Virus record (IMG/VR): IMGVR_UViG_3300046467_000720
Span: 1 to 27,723 of that record
DNA length: 27,723 bases
Source of the DNA: a virus
Direction: 5' to 3' (one strand)
In this document: positions 7,010 through 24,547 of the stretch, one piece after another
Position numbering within the stretch: the stretch's first letter is position 1
Layout of the letters: each line of letters starts with the position of its first letter
Made by a program: the position numbers and the translations under genes
The notes under the pieces: model-generated
Told to the model about the DNA's origin: nothing
The model's database searches: none
Seen by the model: only the letters and a program-made list of their open reading frames with translations

Positions 7010-8926
7010 TTAATAGTCTCCCTGCTGAACCACTGCTTCCGTCTCCTCAATCGCTTGAGCTTCAGGAGCCGGAACCTGTCCAGTGATGGCTTGCATCTCC
7101 ATGGCTTCCTGCTCCTGTTTGTCCGGCATGAAACCCAACTGCACAAGGTACTCTTCAACGTCCTTCCGCAACGCCCTCGCATTGTTGGTGTCCACCTGCT
7201 CATAGGCATTGAGTAATTCGCCCAGCCTTGAGCTAATAGCCTGTTGCCCCTGCGGTGGAACCTGCATCCCGCTCTGCCGCGCTTTCTCAAGGAACTGCAT
7301 GATGACCCCGATCCTCACCCTCGCGTCCTGACCGCCCTCCACGGGAATCATCTCCCCGATCAACAGCGCAGGAATAATCTTCTTCTCATCGGATACCTCG
7401 TTGCCCTCCTTCTCGTTCGGGTCTTGGATAAGTCGCGGTATCAATGACGGGTCTTCCAGTTCCAGAATGCTCTTGTCCAGTTCAACCTGGTTAATCCAAG
7501 GGCTACCCGAAAACAACTGCTTCCGTTGCACCGCCTTGTTGAGCAGCATGGCTTTGCTCACCATATCCATGCCCCCACGCGGTTCAATCTGGTACTCGTC
7601 GTGCAGCGCAACCGGATCAAGCATCAGGCTGTCCTCAAGGAAACGGAACTGCAAATCTTCCCCGTCAAACTGAATCAATAGTTCCCAAGCCTGACGATAT
7701 AATGTTCCCAGTGCCTGACGGAAAAGGCGCAGCCGCAAGTCCATGTTCTGCTGGGACTGGGCATTGATGGATTCAATCTCCGTGGCCGTGCGCCTGTCCT
7801 GCGATGCCATCACCTGATTGATTCCGTAATCGGGAACCGTCACGCGCTGTTCAGCCACCGACTGTGTTCGCATCAGTTCCTTGTCAAAATCTATCGGGGG
7901 TTGCGGCATGGGAACCGGCGCAATTCCAAAGGGCAAAATCTGTCCCGGTTTCATCCGCAGATTAACCGAGTTGGGCAGGTCACGTTCAGCCCTGAAGAGC
8001 GGCTGGTTGAACAACGTGGCGCAGTCCATCTTTTCATTCCAAATCTTGTTCAGGCTGACCTCAAAGGTTCCCAGCATCTCACACACGCCACGCGGACTGT
8101 ACCACCCGCCATCGGTGATCTCATACTCACAGGAGGCAAACGGAGGTTGCCCGTGGTCGTATGGTACAGCCATGGTATCGCGCAGCTTGGTTTCAGGTGA
8201 CTGCGGTGAGAAGGTTTCAATCTGCCATTCCCCGTCCTTTTCCTTCCGCGTGTAAACCTCCCAAACTATGATCTGATCGCGATCACGGCTAAAGGTTAAC
8301 CCCTCGCGGATTTCCTTCCGGTTACGGAGATTATTGCTGATCCCCTCGTTATCCTCCACACCGCCCCGTATCTTGTTAATGACCGCCTTGGATGTGTCAT
8401 AGATACCGGCGCGTTTATACGCCGCCTCGCTCATGGGCAACACATGTGCCACCCTGTCAGCTCCGTCCACCCCCTTCGTCCAAGGCGGAACAATCACAAA
8501 GAGCGGGTCTATCGCCTGAAATTCCACTCGCCGCTTGTCCGGGTTCCAAAACACCTTCAGCACCCCGCGACCGCCCATCAGCATATGGTCAATCCAACTC
8601 ATCACTTCCGTGGCGTAGTTGCTCTGCTCATGGAGCTTATAGGAAAACCATTGTTCAGCCGCCGTGGTGAATCCCGCCAACTGACTTCGCATAGGCACAA
8701 ACGTAGCCAGTACCTCAAGCCCCATGGCTTGCTGAAAGAATCCCGGCTTCAACTTGTTGATGGTGGTATCTATCAGCGGGAAATGCATATCAGCCGCGTT
8801 AGGCCAAGGCTTGTGTTTCCGCTTCAGACCGTTGTTACGCATCTGATACCACAACGCCTGTCGCGTCTCCCATTCCACGCGGGACTTGATGTCATCCGCC
8901 ACCAAGTTATAAATCTTCTCGCTCAT
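7010..8926 (-). CDS. portal protein (638 aa)
   Basis: Probable portal, the dodecameric ring at the head vertex through which DNA is packaged and ejected. The length and arrangement fit portals of podovirus- and N4-gp56-associated phages. It has an N-terminal region with ALWYQMRNNGLKRKHKPWPNA and a central region with RGVLKVFWNP and GGWYSPRGVCEMLG. A long helical part follows with RTATEIESINAQ, a recurrent portal clip/stem motif, and the C-terminus is Gln/Glu-rich. It overlaps the upstream 65-aa gene by four bases (ATGA). Terminase lies upstream and scaffold and capsid downstream, the standard order for a packaging and head module. Confidence 0.88.
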   Translation of the reverse strand: MSEKIYNLVADDIKSRVEWETRQALWYQMRNNGLKRKHKPWPNAADMHFPLIDTTINKLKPGFFQQAMGLEVLATFVPMRSQLAGFTTAAEQWFSYKLHEQSNYATEVMSWIDHMLMGGRGVLKVFWNPDKRRVEFQAIDPLFVIVPPWTKGVDGADRVAHVLPMSEAAYKRAGIYDTSKAVINKIRGGVEDNEGISNNLRNRKEIREGLTFSRDRDQIIVWEVYTRKEKDGEWQIETFSPQSPETKLRDTMAVPYDHGQPPFASCEYEITDGGWYSPRGVCEMLGTFEVSLNKIWNEKMDCATLFNQPLFRAERDLPNSVNLRMKPGQILPFGIAPVPMPQPPIDFDKELMRTQSVAEQRVTVPDYGINQVMASQDRRTATEIESINAQSQQNMDLRLRLFRQALGTLYRQAWELLIQFDGEDLQFRFLEDSLMLDPVALHDEYQIEPRGGMDMVSKAMLLNKAVQRKQLFSGSPWINQVELDKSILELEDPSLIPRLIQDPNEKEGNEVSDEKKIIPALLIGEMIPVEGGQDARVRIGVIMQFLEKARQSGMQVPPQGQQAISSRLGELLNAYEQVDTNNARALRKDVEEYLVQLGFMPDKQEQEAMEMQAITGQVPAPEAQAIEETEAVVQQGDY

Positions 8927-9656: not shown

Positions 9657-11156
9657 TTACCATCCAACCTCCATCCCCGGCGGGACAGACATTGAATCCG
9701 CTATCGCCTCCGCTTCATCATACAACTCGCCCAGTGATGGACGGCTAATACTCTCATAATATTCCCAAGACCCGCCTATCCCCCCTCCACACGCTATACA
9801 CCCCAACACCGCATCAGCCCTGTCAGGACTAGCCAATCCACGCGCCTTCATGCGATCCTTCGGTTCCACCCCCAACTTTCCTGACCGACCCACATCGCTC
9901 CTCCTGGTAATCATCTGTTGATGCAACAATCCATCATCAAACAACCTCACCTCCTGCCGCTCAATCGCCCTAGCTGCCTGATGCCAAATCTCTGCCCCAC
10001 GATTAGTGTATCTCGGGTCAAAAGGTTTTCCCCCAAAGTTTACCCGATGGATGTCAAACCCCGCTTCCATCAAGGCATCGCACATCGGCAATCCCAACCC
10101 GCCTTCATCTCCATACACCTCATCCCCCACCACCCCATGAATATCAAATAACTGCAATAACCTACCTATGCTCTTGTTCGTGTCCCGATCCTTCCAACAC
10201 TCCATCACCGTCACCTCATTGCCCACTCGCAAAGCAAACACACACTCATCCCCGCCAGCCGCGAAATCCACAAACGCACACTTCATCCCGTCCTTACGCT
10301 CAGGTGGTTCCTTCAAACATTTCTCCAAGTCCTTCAACATCAATACCACACCCTCATCACTGTCATCCATGAATTCCCCATAGATCATACTCCGAATCAA
10401 AGGGCTGCTCTCTCCATAAGTCTGGATCTGTTCGCTAATCCAGTCCTTCGTCAGATGCGGGCAGTCATATGCCGTCACAGTAAATGTCTCCCAACGCTCC
10501 CGTTGTTTAGTGAACGCATCATAAAAGAAACCCGTAGCCGCTCCCGGACTGCTCATCATCAATAACCGACTAGGTTGACACCGCTCAACCGCATGGAAAA
10601 TCTCGTCATCATGTATCCCCTTCGCTTCATCCACAATGAACAAAAGATTGTTACTCTCCCCCTGCCTATGCCAACCCTCCGCCTTGTGCGGGTCACTAGC
10701 ACTAAACCCAATCGCCCTAGCCCCATTCACAAATCTCAACCCACTCTGCGTAACCTCAAACCCCTCACCCGCCGTCAACTGCTGCACGTACCTCTTCAAC
10801 GTAGGCCACAACGCAGCCTCTACCTGCCGGTAAACTCCAGCAGTACAAACCACCAAACTATCCGGGAAACTAATCACATGCCACAACACCGCTATCGCCG
10901 CAACCATACTAGTCTTCCCACTACCATTCGCAGCCTTCAACGCCACACGGCTCTCCTTGTAATTCAATTCCTTCAACACATCCACCTGCCAAGGATACAA
11001 GTCCATGTCCAAATACGTCTTCGCAAACCAATGCAAATCCGATCGCTTTGAACGTGCCAACTCACTCTCCTTACCTTTCCGGTTACGCGATCCTTTCGGA
11101 CGACCCGCTTTCTTGGCCACAGGTTTACTTGTAACAGGCTTTGATGACTTGTTCAT
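9657..11156 (-). CDS. terminase large subunit (499 aa)
   Basis: ATP-driven DNA-packaging motor and headful/cos nuclease. The Walker A motif (ANGSGKT) is at about residues 76-82 and Walker B (LLFIVDEA) at 171-178. The C-terminal nuclease domain shows the acidic FVDFAAGGDE segment, a second site at GDEGGLG, and a third near SPDRADA, which is the usual Asp triad of large terminases. The N-terminus is basic and has a GRPKGSRNRKGK hook-like segment. I start it at the ATG that overlaps the upstream TGA (ATGA), which has GGGAG upstream, rather than at an in-frame start 45 bases earlier inside the preceding gene. The length is normal. Confidence 0.93.
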   Translation of the reverse strand: MNKSSKPVTSKPVAKKAGRPKGSRNRKGKESELARSKRSDLHWFAKTYLDMDLYPWQVDVLKELNYKESRVALKAANGSGKTSMVAAIAVLWHVISFPDSLVVCTAGVYRQVEAALWPTLKRYVQQLTAGEGFEVTQSGLRFVNGARAIGFSASDPHKAEGWHRQGESNNLLFIVDEAKGIHDDEIFHAVERCQPSRLLMMSSPGAATGFFYDAFTKQRERWETFTVTAYDCPHLTKDWISEQIQTYGESSPLIRSMIYGEFMDDSDEGVVLMLKDLEKCLKEPPERKDGMKCAFVDFAAGGDECVFALRVGNEVTVMECWKDRDTNKSIGRLLQLFDIHGVVGDEVYGDEGGLGLPMCDALMEAGFDIHRVNFGGKPFDPRYTNRGAEIWHQAARAIERQEVRLFDDGLLHQQMITRRSDVGRSGKLGVEPKDRMKARGLASPDRADAVLGCIACGGGIGGSWEYYESISRPSLGELYDEAEAIADSMSVPPGMEVGW

Positions 11157-11614
11157 GCTATCTCCCACCTGAATTTCTGTTGGCCGTATATCGGTTGCCA
11201 TTCACGCACCTTGCCGTCTCGCTTGCTCTTACGGCCCCAAGCATCATGCGGCTTTACCTCCGCGACTATCCGCCATCCCGATCCACGCAAACTCGCACCA
11301 CTCTCATCCTGCAATGTATAAGTCACCAACCTGTCACCACCCATCGCCCTCCACGCTCGCCAACACGCGCCATACAACTTTGAATTAGAGTTCCTCGGAG
11401 CCTGCCCATTCACACAAACCCGCAACACCTCCGCAGTTCCTCGCACCATGAACGTAGCCGATAACGGATTACCCACTATCGCTACCCCAACCAGTTCGCC
11501 TTCCTCCAAACCAATCGCAAACTTCCCACCATTCCTAACCGTCCTCCCGTTGTGCCGATGAAACGACTCAACGAAATCATTAGCCTCACGCAATGTTACC
11601 GGAACAATAGTCAT
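11153..11614 (-). CDS. XF1762-family GNAT-like acyltransferase (153 aa)
   Basis: The sequence matches the phage- and plasmid-borne XF1762 family, which has a GNAT-like fold. It shows an N-terminal SFHRHNG motif, then EEGELVGVAIVGNPLSA. The centre has EVLRVCVNGQAPRNSNSKLY, and RLVTYTLQDESGASLRGSGW follows. Its substrate is unknown; phage members are often suspected of modifying DNA or a host protein, but that is not shown here. It lies between the terminase genes and overlaps the large-subunit start by four bases, so it is co-transcribed with packaging genes. A C-rich, G-quadruplex-capable leader precedes it. Confidence 0.82.
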   Translation of the reverse strand: MTIVPVTLREANDFVESFHRHNGRTVRNGGKFAIGLEEGELVGVAIVGNPLSATFMVRGTAEVLRVCVNGQAPRNSNSKLYGACWRAWRAMGGDRLVTYTLQDESGASLRGSGWRIVAEVKPHDAWGRKSKRDGKVREWQPIYGQQKFRWEIA

Positions 11615-12213: not shown

Positions 12214-12342
12214 AAATAAAAGCGCGTTACGTTTTAGTGAATAGGGACGGGGCAAACAAGCTCATTATTCACCATTTGCTACAATATATCACATTTACCC
12301 GTGAATTGCCTGAAAATACTTTGCAATATGTGAAAATATAGC

Positions 12343-12370
12343 TTGTGCAATAGCGTGTAGAGTGTAGATT
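12343..12370 (+). promoter_or_regulatory. candidate sigma70-type promoter for the rightward cluster
   Basis: TTGTGC, a 16-base spacer, then TAGATT. The predicted start falls near 12377, exactly where a leader hairpin begins. The elements are weak matches, so this is tentative. Confidence 0.3.
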
Positions 12371-12430: not shown

Positions 12431-12637
12431 ATGGCAACAAAACACAAATTCATTGCAAGAGTACACGACAAAAAGACCGTGCAGAAAATGCTTAAATCTT
12501 TTCGGCACGCTGGCCTTAATGTTGAAAAGCTTGACGCCGGGTATTCAGTCACCACTAAAAAAGGCTTTGAAGTATTCAAGGCCATGATAGGCAGCAGAGC
12601 ATACCTCTGCCGGTACGTGGATAATCTATTTGCATAA
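12431..12637 (+). CDS. unknown small basic protein (68 aa)
   Basis: The first gene of the rightward cluster. It is basic (starts MATKHKFIARVHDKKTVQKM, ends YLCRYVDNLFA), with alternating strands and helices that suggest a compact alpha/beta domain. No family is recognised. The ribosome site is weak. It is separated from the next gene by 152 bases that hold a complex RNA fold, so it may be regulated separately from the downstream genes. Confidence 0.6.
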   Translation: MATKHKFIARVHDKKTVQKMLKSFRHAGLNVEKLDAGYSVTTKKGFEVFKAMIGSRAYLCRYVDNLFA

Positions 12638-12652
12638 TCCCACTGTGCAGAT

Positions 12653-12772
12653 ACCGCGTTGCGGTGTTTGCCTTGTGTGATTAACACAAACCTAGCCAAT
12701 GAAAAGCCGATAGGGCGCGGCATTTGCTAGGATAAGAAAAACACCGCTCGACGCGTTAACGTCGCCTATCGG
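12653..12772 (+). ncRNA. candidate structured RNA: three-way junction with pseudoknot
   Basis: Stems visible by pairing: PA, 12661-12669 with 12739-12747 (9 bp, GCGGTGTTT/AAACACCGC); PB hairpin, 12673-12678 with 12684-12689 (6 bp, 5-base loop); PC, 12691-12696 with 12726-12731 (6 bp) continuing as 12698-12701 with 12721-12724 (4 bp); PD hairpin, 12749-12753 with 12760-12764 (5 bp). The 19-base PC loop contains CCGATAGG (12707-12714), which pairs perfectly with CCTATCGG at 12765-12772 and makes a pseudoknot. An alternative 5' hairpin, ACCGC/GCGGT at 12653-12665, would compete with PA. The element ends 17 bases before the 12790 start codon. I do not recognise it as a known class; it may be a cis-regulatory leader or a separate small RNA. 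Confidence 0.7.
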
Positions 12773-12789: not shown

Positions 12790-13095
12790 ATGGCTAGGAG
12801 AATAACAAGCAAAAACCTTGAGAACCTGTGCGAACACCTCAACAAGTTAACCGGCAACCCAATTGAGCCTTACACTAAAAACGCAAGCGGCGACTATGAC
12901 GCGAACGTTGGCGCGTACCTCATAAGCGGTGCGTATGGCGGGTGGGCATTGCATCAAATGGACAATGACAAGGGCGGCGAGCGGGATGTTTTATCTTCCG
13001 GCCATGTTCCGGCACGGGAATTGTTTAACCTCATCCATGCGTACTTGCGCGGGATGGAAGCGCAAGGGCTGTATAGCCAGGAGGTGAGCGCATGA
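12790..13095 (+). CDS. conserved phage-type hypothetical protein (101 aa)
   Basis: The protein has the pattern of a hypothetical protein I recognise as common in phages: a polar N-terminal helix region, then GAYLISGAYGGWALHQM, and a C-terminal REL.NLIHAYLRGM segment. No biochemical role is known to me. It starts downstream of the structured RNA without a normal ribosome site (GGGGAAAAAG lies too far away), so its translation may depend on that RNA. It overlaps the next gene by four bases. Confidence 0.7.
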   Translation: MARRITSKNLENLCEHLNKLTGNPIEPYTKNASGDYDANVGAYLISGAYGGWALHQMDNDKGGERDVLSSGHVPARELFNLIHAYLRGMEAQGLYSQEVSA

Positions 13096-22798: not shown

Positions 22799-23959
22799 CT
22801 AGGGGAATATATTCCAGAAATCCTTTGCCATTGGGGGAGTAATCGCGCTGCCGATGTAATGAGTGAACAGGGTGGTGGTATTAATGGAATGCCCCATTGC
22901 AGTCTTCAAATCCGTCTCATGGCGGAAGTGCTTGAGGTGGCACGATGCAAAGGTGTGGCGCATTATGTCGGACTCATCCTTGCCCCATGTCACGCCGGAA
23001 ATATATTTAATCCTGTCCCTCCGGCGGCGTATGTTTCGCATAGCTGGCAAGTCTCCACCTAGCTCAAGCCACGCCTTCGCATTGTCTTGTAGAGGGACTT
23101 CCCTTTTCTCCCGCGTCTTTGATCCGCCTCTTGAAATGTAAACGGCGTTTGCCTCCAAGCATACGTAGCTCGGCAGGTTCTTCCACTGCTTGGCGGGGAA
23201 CTCATGCCGCCAATGCACGGAAGCAATTTCATTGGGGCGCACGCCGCAAAAGATTCCAAGAGCGTAGTACGGGAGAAGTTCGGGATCATGCTTGCGGCAT
23301 ACTTCAAATATCTTACGCACATCGTCGGGAAAGAATACGGCCACATCCTCCTTGCCTTGATAAGCTCCGAACTCCTCCTTGCAGTTAATCTTGGCAACCG
23401 GATTGTCCCGCCGGTAGTCCTCGCGCTTCACCCACGCAAAGAATTGATGTAGCTGATTCCGGCGTAGCCGCTTTGTGTTGTTCCCCCATCCATTGTGATT
23501 GAGGTACTCCAAAACGAACTGGTCGGTAACATCCCTTACCTTCACATCCTGGTAACCGTAAAACCCCTGCACGGCATACAGAAGGCATTCAATGCTTTTC
23601 TCTCGTAATCCCTTCTTGACCAGCGAATCGCGAAAGTCCCAGTACAGTTCACTCACTGGCACATCATCCTTTAGAGCCGAATCGGTATCCTTCTCTTTTA
23701 AAATCTGAAGGACATCAAAGAGGGAACAATCCATCTCACGCGATAGCTTGGCGATCCTGCTCAAGTCCATGCGCTGCTCGCTGGACAGGTCAGCAATGGA
23801 TGCGCCGTAGGTTGACAATTCCTTTTCCCGATCTGTAACAAACTTCTCGGCCTCGGCCCTGCTGGCAAACCACCTCTTTTTCCTTTTTCCCTTAACAGTA
23901 AAAGTGGCGCGGTATTGCTTTGTTCCTTCCGGCTTCTTGGGGTCTTTTATTATATTCAT
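22799..23959 (-). CDS. int: tyrosine-recombinase integrase (386 aa)
   Basis: Catalyses site-specific integration. The N-terminal arm-binding part (to about 60) is basic (KGKRKKRWFASRAEAEKFVT), then comes a SAM-like core-binding domain with LREKSIECLLYAVQGF, and the catalytic domain. Catalytic residues visible: R241 (GVRPNEI), K281 (GSKTREKREVPL), R334 in D331-I-M-R334-H335, H357 (MGHS) and Y368 (THYIG). The usual His before xxR is Asp here, a substitution I regard as tolerated. The C-terminus after Tyr is short. The gene leads the leftward operon from a strong promoter, and a terminator follows. Confidence 0.92.
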   Translation of the reverse strand: MNIIKDPKKPEGTKQYRATFTVKGKRKKRWFASRAEAEKFVTDREKELSTYGASIADLSSEQRMDLSRIAKLSREMDCSLFDVLQILKEKDTDSALKDDVPVSELYWDFRDSLVKKGLREKSIECLLYAVQGFYGYQDVKVRDVTDQFVLEYLNHNGWGNNTKRLRRNQLHQFFAWVKREDYRRDNPVAKINCKEEFGAYQGKEDVAVFFPDDVRKIFEVCRKHDPELLPYYALGIFCGVRPNEIASVHWRHEFPAKQWKNLPSYVCLEANAVYISRGGSKTREKREVPLQDNAKAWLELGGDLPAMRNIRRRRDRIKYISGVTWGKDESDIMRHTFASCHLKHFRHETDLKTAMGHSINTTTLFTHYIGSAITPPMAKDFWNIFP

Positions 23960-24018
23960 ATCCTAGCTTTCTCTTATGAGGGCTGCACACTGTGTCCAGT
24001 AACCTCAACGCGGGGGGC

Positions 24019-24322: not shown

Positions 24323-24547
24323 ATGTCTAGGATACTACGAAAGAAATCATCATTAAAAACCACGTTCGTCGCCTTTCGGATGACCGACGCAGAACTTAAA
24401 CGTGTCAATGATATGGCAAAGCGCGTGGGAATGTCGCGCTCTCAATTCATATCCCGCTCTGTCGTGGATACCATGGATCGTGTTGAGGCCAAGAGAAGGC
24501 CCAAACGCACCTTCATTGAATTGTGCCGGTATATCCTTGGGAAGTAG
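24323..24547 (+). CDS. ribbon-helix-helix regulator (74 aa)
   Basis: A basic CopG/Arc-like protein: strand TTFVAFRMTDAELKRVNDMA, helix RVGMSRSQFISRSVVDTM, and a basic C-terminal tail with EAKRRPKRTFIELC. It is divergent from the integrase, so it is the best candidate for a regulator of the lysogeny region; its DNA targets could be the GGGTGACCC or TCACAATGTGA repeats. AGGGTG is a modest ribosome site. The stop directly abuts the opposing gene. Confidence 0.72.
   Translation: MSRILRKKSSLKTTFVAFRMTDAELKRVNDMAKRVGMSRSQFISRSVVDTMDRVEAKRRPKRTFIELCRYILGK

What the first reader, a model, noticed from the sequence alone, without database searches (positions are those of the whole stretch)
12653..12772. 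Compact RNA with three-way junction and long-range pseudoknot in a phage leader
Five stems (9, 6, 10, 5 and 8 bp) pair almost perfectly within 112 bases, and the 8-bp one links the loop of the third hairpin with a strand downstream. The topology (junction, hairpin, then a loop-to-tail pseudoknot) is reminiscent of viral exonuclease-resistant RNAs, but nothing in the sequence identifies it with that class. It ends 17 bases before a gene without a normal ribosome site, so a regulatory role is attractive. Alternatives are a small trans-acting RNA or a processing signal.
Basis: seen in the sequence. Interest (0 to 1): 0.85.

Follow-up and report, generated by a model that had tools for sequence, protein, structure and literature searches.

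The report
Pseudoknot leader before swapped phage genes
In phages that probably infect Verrucomicrobiota, a roughly 100-nucleotide knotted RNA structure always fills the gap between one gene's stop codon and the next gene's start codon, and evolution has kept its shape while its letters and the genes on both sides changed, so it most likely controls how the next gene is translated.

Summary
The element is real, is a structured RNA, and was not in Rfam. I found 18 relatives in uncultivated phage contigs (19 distinct sequences). The 6-bp hairpin is also supported (14 of 17). It competes with an 11-bp local hairpin that is conserved.

In every relative the element fills the space from an upstream UAA stop to a downstream AUG. 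The pseudoknot ends 13-18 nt before that AUG, although the downstream genes fall into 8 unrelated families. The best reading is a cis-acting translational leader of an exchangeable early-gene slot. A switch is possible: the pseudoknot's 5' strand can pair either inside the pseudoknot or with the start region. That pairing shows no covariation, so it is a hypothesis. Exonuclease resistance, a ribozyme, a packaging RNA or an independent sRNA are unsupported.

The parts
12431..12637 (+). upstream small ORF (68 aa); its stop codon UAA (12635-12637) is the first base of the leader
   Evidence: ORF list; in all 17 relatives with the hairpin module the leader likewise begins at an upstream UAA (L168's seen)
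12647..12671 (+). hairpin P0: 12647-12657 / 12661-12671, 11 bp
   Evidence: in the minimum-energy fold; rebuilt with different sequence in 17 leaders, 92/94 pairs in the first nine
12673..12689 (+). hairpin P2: 12673-12678 / 12684-12689, 6 bp
   Evidence: 14 of 17 leaders; closing pair varies U-A, G-C, C-G, A-U, U-G
12691..12731 (+). stem P3 of the pseudoknot: 12691-12701 / 12721-12731; its 3' strand contains the first CUAGGA copy (12727-12732)
   Evidence: 97% of cells paired in 19 sequences with compensatory changes; 102/106 pairs by hand in 10
12707..12772 (+). pseudoknot helix A: 12707-12714 (in the P3 loop) / 12765-12772, 8 bp
   Evidence: 157/157 pairs in 19 sequences, 10 sequence versions; compensatory changes in 7 of 8 columns
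   Evidence: 89/89 pairs in 18 sequences, 5 versions; not found in L110
12732..12743 (+). A-rich strand crossing from P3 to B' (AUAAGAAAAACA; usually AUAAGAACAA in relatives)
   Evidence: alignments
12749..12764 (+). hairpin P5: 12749-12753 / 12760-12764, between B' and A'; A, B and P5 make a three-way junction
   Evidence: 79/79 pairs in 19 sequences, 6 versions
12790..13095 (+). downstream ORF, 101 aa; AUG 17 nt after the pseudoknot
   Evidence: spacing 13-18 nt in all 19; no Pfam or PHROG match
12791..12798 (+). UGGCUAGG overlapping the start codon, complementary to P3 5' strand CCUAGCCA (12691-12698): possible alternative, start-hiding pairing
   Evidence: minimum-energy fold; no covariation support
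   Evidence: no covariation, 65.6% of cells paired against 63.3% in shuffles

Best explanation
This is a cis-acting translational leader in the early rightward operon of a group of phages that probably infect Verrucomicrobiota. SHOWN: a conserved RNA fold runs from the upstream stop codon: hairpins P0 and P2, then an H-type pseudoknot. P3 is the first stem; strands A and B in its loop pair with downstream strands, and hairpin P5 completes a three-way junction. The fold ends 13-18 nt before the AUG. The same leader stands before at least 8 unrelated genes. INFERRED: the pseudoknot borders the initiating ribosome and sets how well the downstream gene is translated, whichever gene occupies the slot. 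PROPOSED: the 5' strand of P3 (CCUAG) can pair with either of two CUAGG copies. Paired with the first copy, the pseudoknot forms and the start site is free; paired with the second, the start region is hidden. Ribosomes, folding order or a phage or host protein recognising CUAGGA could tip the balance.
For: Covariation in 19 sequences: 94% of cells paired against 80.8% in shuffles; 15 of 24 pairs change on both sides, against 6.2 in shuffles and 3-6 when partners are slid. By hand: A 157/157, B 89/89, P5 79/79. L063, L020 and L110 were found by models built without them (E 3.8e-27, 4.9e-6, 3.1e-4). Eight more were fetched by P3 and CUAGG letters alone, yet A, B and P5 pair in all. Pseudoknot-to-AUG spacing is 13-18 nt in all 19. 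There are 8 downstream and 10 upstream protein families, so the leader, not a gene, is what stays. CTAGGA is the hexamer most enriched within 15 nt of ATGs in these phages (26 of 65). Nearly every pseudoknot-free fold hides the start-proximal CUAGG copy.
Against: No expression, probing or transcription data. The alternative start-hiding pairing shows no covariation: 92.0% paired against 91.0% in shuffles. In the window the second CUAGGA lies after the AUG, not before it. CUAGGA sits 1-19 nt from the AUG and is CUAGCA in L110, so it is not a plain Shine-Dalgarno sequence. No trigger is known. Most of the 19 phages are related, so counts of sequences overstate independent events.
Confidence: 0.6

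Rival explanations
1. RNA stability or processing element: the knot blocks a 5'-to-3' nuclease or marks a cleavage site in the polycistronic early mRNA and so protects the downstream part (working like an exonuclease-resistant RNA).
For: Topology is conserved while loop letters drift in L020 and L110, as a mechanical block would allow; a hairpin plus a pseudoknot with a three-way junction; downstream gene identity is irrelevant.
Against: A block does not need a fixed 13-18 nt to the AUG. In mosquito-borne flaviviral xrRNAs the 5' end threads a ring and conserved nucleotides are required (PMC5760640); no shared conserved unpaired core survives in L020 or L110.
Confidence: 0.14
2. Operator for a protein repressor: a phage or host protein binds the knot or the CUAGGA copies and represses several early genes, as gp32 binds its pseudoknot operator in T4.
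For: CUAGGA recurs before several genes of the same operon and before the integrase; a pseudoknot 5' of the initiation region is the T4 gene 32 layout (PMC535899).
Against: No candidate protein; the downstream genes are unrelated, so it is not autoregulation by the product. This is a sub-case of the best explanation rather than its opposite.
Confidence: 0.15
3. Transcription element such as a put-like antiterminator or an attenuator acting on RNA polymerase.
For: One copy per operon, few genes from the operon's start, with any genes downstream.
Against: No terminator-like hairpin with a T run at the element; the fixed position relative to both stop and start codons is not needed for an effect on polymerase.
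Confidence: 0.08
4. Independent small RNA or packaging RNA made next to the terminase genes (phi29 pRNA-like).
For: Single copy per phage, near the small terminase gene.
Against: No promoter-like or terminator-like site on the + strand at the element; it starts at a stop codon and ends at an RBS in all relatives.
Confidence: 0.05

Closest known systems
T4/RB69 gene 32 translational operator (pseudoknot 5' of the initiation region)
   Same: phage mRNA, a pseudoknot upstream of the ribosome-binding region, likely translational role (PMC535899)
   Different: the T4 knot is about 28 nt, is followed by more than 40 nt of unstructured UUAAA repeats and serves one conserved gene; here about 82 nt with a three-way junction, 13-18 nt from the AUG, before 8 unrelated gene families
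Flaviviral exonuclease-resistant RNAs (xrRNA)
   Same: three-way junction plus an apical-loop-to-downstream pseudoknot
   Different: the junction lies inside the pseudoknot rather than preceding it; no conserved ring nucleotides; lies between coding genes of a DNA phage, not in a viral 3' UTR
STAXI motif
   Same: pseudoknot RNA near genes for DNA-manipulating proteins (PMC2864571)
   Different: STAXI is a pseudoknot repeated two or three times in tandem; here a single, larger knot; no Rfam match
manA and wcaG leader RNAs of cyanophages
   Same: structured leaders carried by marine phages (PMC2864571)
   Different: those precede metabolic genes; no Rfam match here

Membership tests
any of the 4227 Rfam 15 families | score at or above the family's gathering threshold | tested here: not met
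   window: no match; best sub-threshold narK 17.6 bits against 43.2; eight loci with relatives: none
xrRNA (mosquito-borne flavivirus class) | three-way junction formed upstream of and around the pseudoknotted hairpin | tested here: not met
   the stem closing such a junction (12661-12669/12739-12747) is not conserved
xrRNA (mosquito-borne flavivirus class) | loop-to-downstream pseudoknot | tested here: met
   helix A 157/157 pairs
xrRNA (mosquito-borne flavivirus class) | resistance to 5'-to-3' exonuclease | not testable with these tools
   needs an in vitro Xrn1 or RNase J assay
T4 gene 32-type translational operator | pseudoknot upstream of the initiation region of an mRNA | tested here: met
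   13-18 nt before the AUG in 19 of 19
T4 gene 32-type translational operator | autoregulated single-strand-binding-protein gene downstream, with UUAAA repeats | tested here: not met
   8 unrelated downstream families, among them DUF7227, DUF7249 and DUF1419; no UUAAA-repeat tract in the leader
riboswitch or self-cleaving ribozyme | conserved unpaired nucleotides forming a ligand site or active site | tested here: inconclusive
   loops are conserved among close relatives but replaced in L020 and L110, which speaks against both; no cleavage or binding assay
phi29 pRNA | separately transcribed packaging RNA | tested here: inconclusive
   no promoter- or terminator-like site on the + strand at the element, but the scan covers sigma-70 types only

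The most novel reading that the evidence does not exclude
A new class of bistable RNA leader: one anti-strand (CCUAG) chooses between two identical sense copies, one inside a pseudoknot with a built-in three-way junction and one at the start codon. It works as a portable translation switch for an exchangeable slot of early phage genes, which may be counter-defence genes.
Probability: 0.25. Interest if true: 0.85.

Novelty: new variant of a known kind. Interest (0 to 1): 0.66.

Why it matters
It is an RNA family absent from Rfam, with unusually clean covariation and a pseudoknot containing a three-way junction. It stayed in place while genes on both sides were exchanged, so phages seem to keep a standard translation leader for a hypervariable early-gene slot. 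The leader could serve as a search tag for unknown accessory, perhaps counter-defence, genes of poorly known Verrucomicrobiota phages.

Tried and rejected
An outer stem pairing the stop region UAAUC with GAUUA: I first believed it, but its sixth position is almost always mismatched and five leaders break the stem, while hairpin P2, which uses the same strand, covaries; dropped. CUAGGA as a -10 promoter box: in L053 and L056 it ends 1 nt from the AUG, leaving no room for a start of transcription. CUAGGA as a plain Shine-Dalgarno sequence: spacing 1-19 nt and CUAGCA in L110. Weak model hits in L021 and L013: without A/B/P5 pairing and shared by two related phages within an apparent coding stretch; treated as chance. 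L050: shares the pattern on the other strand but folds differently. Host genomes: no element in 388 Verrucomicrobiota genomes, with strict filters and no positive control. DNA searches of annotated phages and plasmids: nothing convincing. A relaxed shape-only scan is useless: 137 hits against 133 in reversed sequence.

Full report
CHECK OF THE OBSERVATION. A strict description (P3 of about 10 bp, an 8-bp Watson-Crick link from its loop to a strand downstream, a 5-bp hairpin just before that strand) fits one place in the window and none of 3000 local or 60 whole-window shuffles. No Rfam family matches and no annotated phage shares the DNA.

RELATIVES. The window is a complete IMG/VR record of 27,723 bases. 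Its large terminase led to relatives; L002 and L006 carry the same leader. Pattern scans and two covariance models gave 19 distinct sequences: window, L002, L006, L048, L053, L055, L056, L057, L063, L020, L110, L161, L162, L164, L165, L167, L168, L169, L170. Three were found by models built without them: L063 (E 3.8e-27), L020 (E 4.9e-6) and L110 (E 3.1e-4). L161-L170 were fetched with a pattern that contained only the P3 strands and a later ACTAGG, so the pairing of A, B and P5 in those that belong to the family is an independent test.

THE FOLD. From 5' to 3' (window coordinates): stop codon UAA 12635-12637; hairpin P0 12647-12657/12661-12671; hairpin P2 12673-12678/12684-12689; P3 12691-12701/12721-12731, whose loop holds strands A (12707-12714) and B (12717-12720); an A-rich strand 12732-12743; B' 12744-12747; hairpin P5 12749-12753/12760-12764; A' 12765-12772; AUG 12790. 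A, B and P5 form a three-way junction that is pseudoknotted with P3. In the 19-sequence alignment 94.0% of cells pair (shuffles 80.8 +/- 1.0), 15 of 24 pairs change on both sides (shuffles 6.2), and sliding the partners by one to three columns drops pairing to 26-47%. That alignment was fitted to a model with A, B and P5, so it leans towards them. The hand count, with strand order enforced, gives A 157/157 in 10 versions, B 89/89 in 5 and P5 79/79 in 6; helix B was not found in L110. P2 forms in 14 of 17 leaders with five types of closing pair, and P0 is rebuilt with new letters. L020 and L110 lack P0 and P2, so the pseudoknot is the core.

POSITION AND NEIGHBOURS. In all relatives where it could be traced the element starts at an upstream UAA (for L168 the UAA is seen), and in all 19 the pseudoknot ends 13-18 nt before the downstream AUG. 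The downstream proteins fall into 8 unrelated families and the upstream ones into 10. They include DUF7227, DUF7249 and a DUF1419-like protein. Each whole record tested holds one confident copy. The closest cultured phages by terminase infect Akkermansia (36% identity), and several of the more distant genome hits are Verrucomicrobiota, so the host is probably in that phylum; this is an inference.

MECHANISM. A leader kept between stop and start while the genes on both sides are exchanged, with a constant gap to the AUG, argues for an effect on translation of whatever gene follows (inference). CTAGGA is the most enriched hexamer within 15 nt upstream of ATGs in these phages (26 of 65). The leader carries two copies: one in the 3' strand of P3 and one at the start (in the window just after the AUG, 12794-12799; the motif is CUAGCA in L110). 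The 5' strand of P3 is complementary to both, and pseudoknot-free folds of nearly all relatives pair it with the start-proximal copy around an intact A/B/P5 junction. This suggests a two-state switch. However, that pairing shows no covariation and may simply follow from the repeated motif, so I give the switch about 0.25 and the general translational role about 0.6.

COMPARISON. It works most like the T4 gene 32 operator, a pseudoknot 5' of the initiation region (PMC535899), but is not a member: different size and architecture, and no single conserved gene. A ribozyme or metabolite riboswitch is unlikely because unpaired letters are not kept in L020 and L110.

LIMITS. There is no evidence of transcription or function. 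Relatedness inflates counts. The negative host-genome search had strict filters and no positive control.

Noticed in passing
L002 8464-8536 (-), L006 7918-7990 and 8444-8519 (-), L048 1221-1295 (+), L056 1605-1679 (+): Short leaders with the same P0-type hairpin after a UAA stop and CUAGGA before the next AUG, but no pseudoknot; they stand before other genes of the same operon.
   Followed up: partly
window 23959-23966 (-) and 24323-24335 (+): The integrase start is preceded by GCTAGGATATG, the same CUAGGA motif; an ORF at 24323 has it just after its ATG.
   Followed up: no
L055 3083-3655 (-), and upstream of the element in 9 other relatives: A conserved protein of about 180-200 aa (MKIPKxCKLEKV...) precedes the leader in 10 of 19; no Pfam match for the L055 copy.
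   Followed up: partly
window 12790-13095 and the matching gene in relatives: The gene slot after the leader holds 8 unrelated small families, a candidate site for accessory or counter-defence genes.
   Followed up: partly
window 12256-12346: An imperfect 24-nt inverted repeat (71%) in the divergent promoter region between the small terminase gene and the first rightward gene.
   Followed up: no
window 11153-11614 (-): A Mom-like DNA modification protein next to the terminase genes (PHROG 1384, E 1.2e-31).
   Followed up: no
L050 about 8780-8910 (-): A different phage leader with CCUAGC...GCUAGG and a 12-bp alternative pairing before a gene with a normal Shine-Dalgarno sequence; probably unrelated.
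   Followed up: partly
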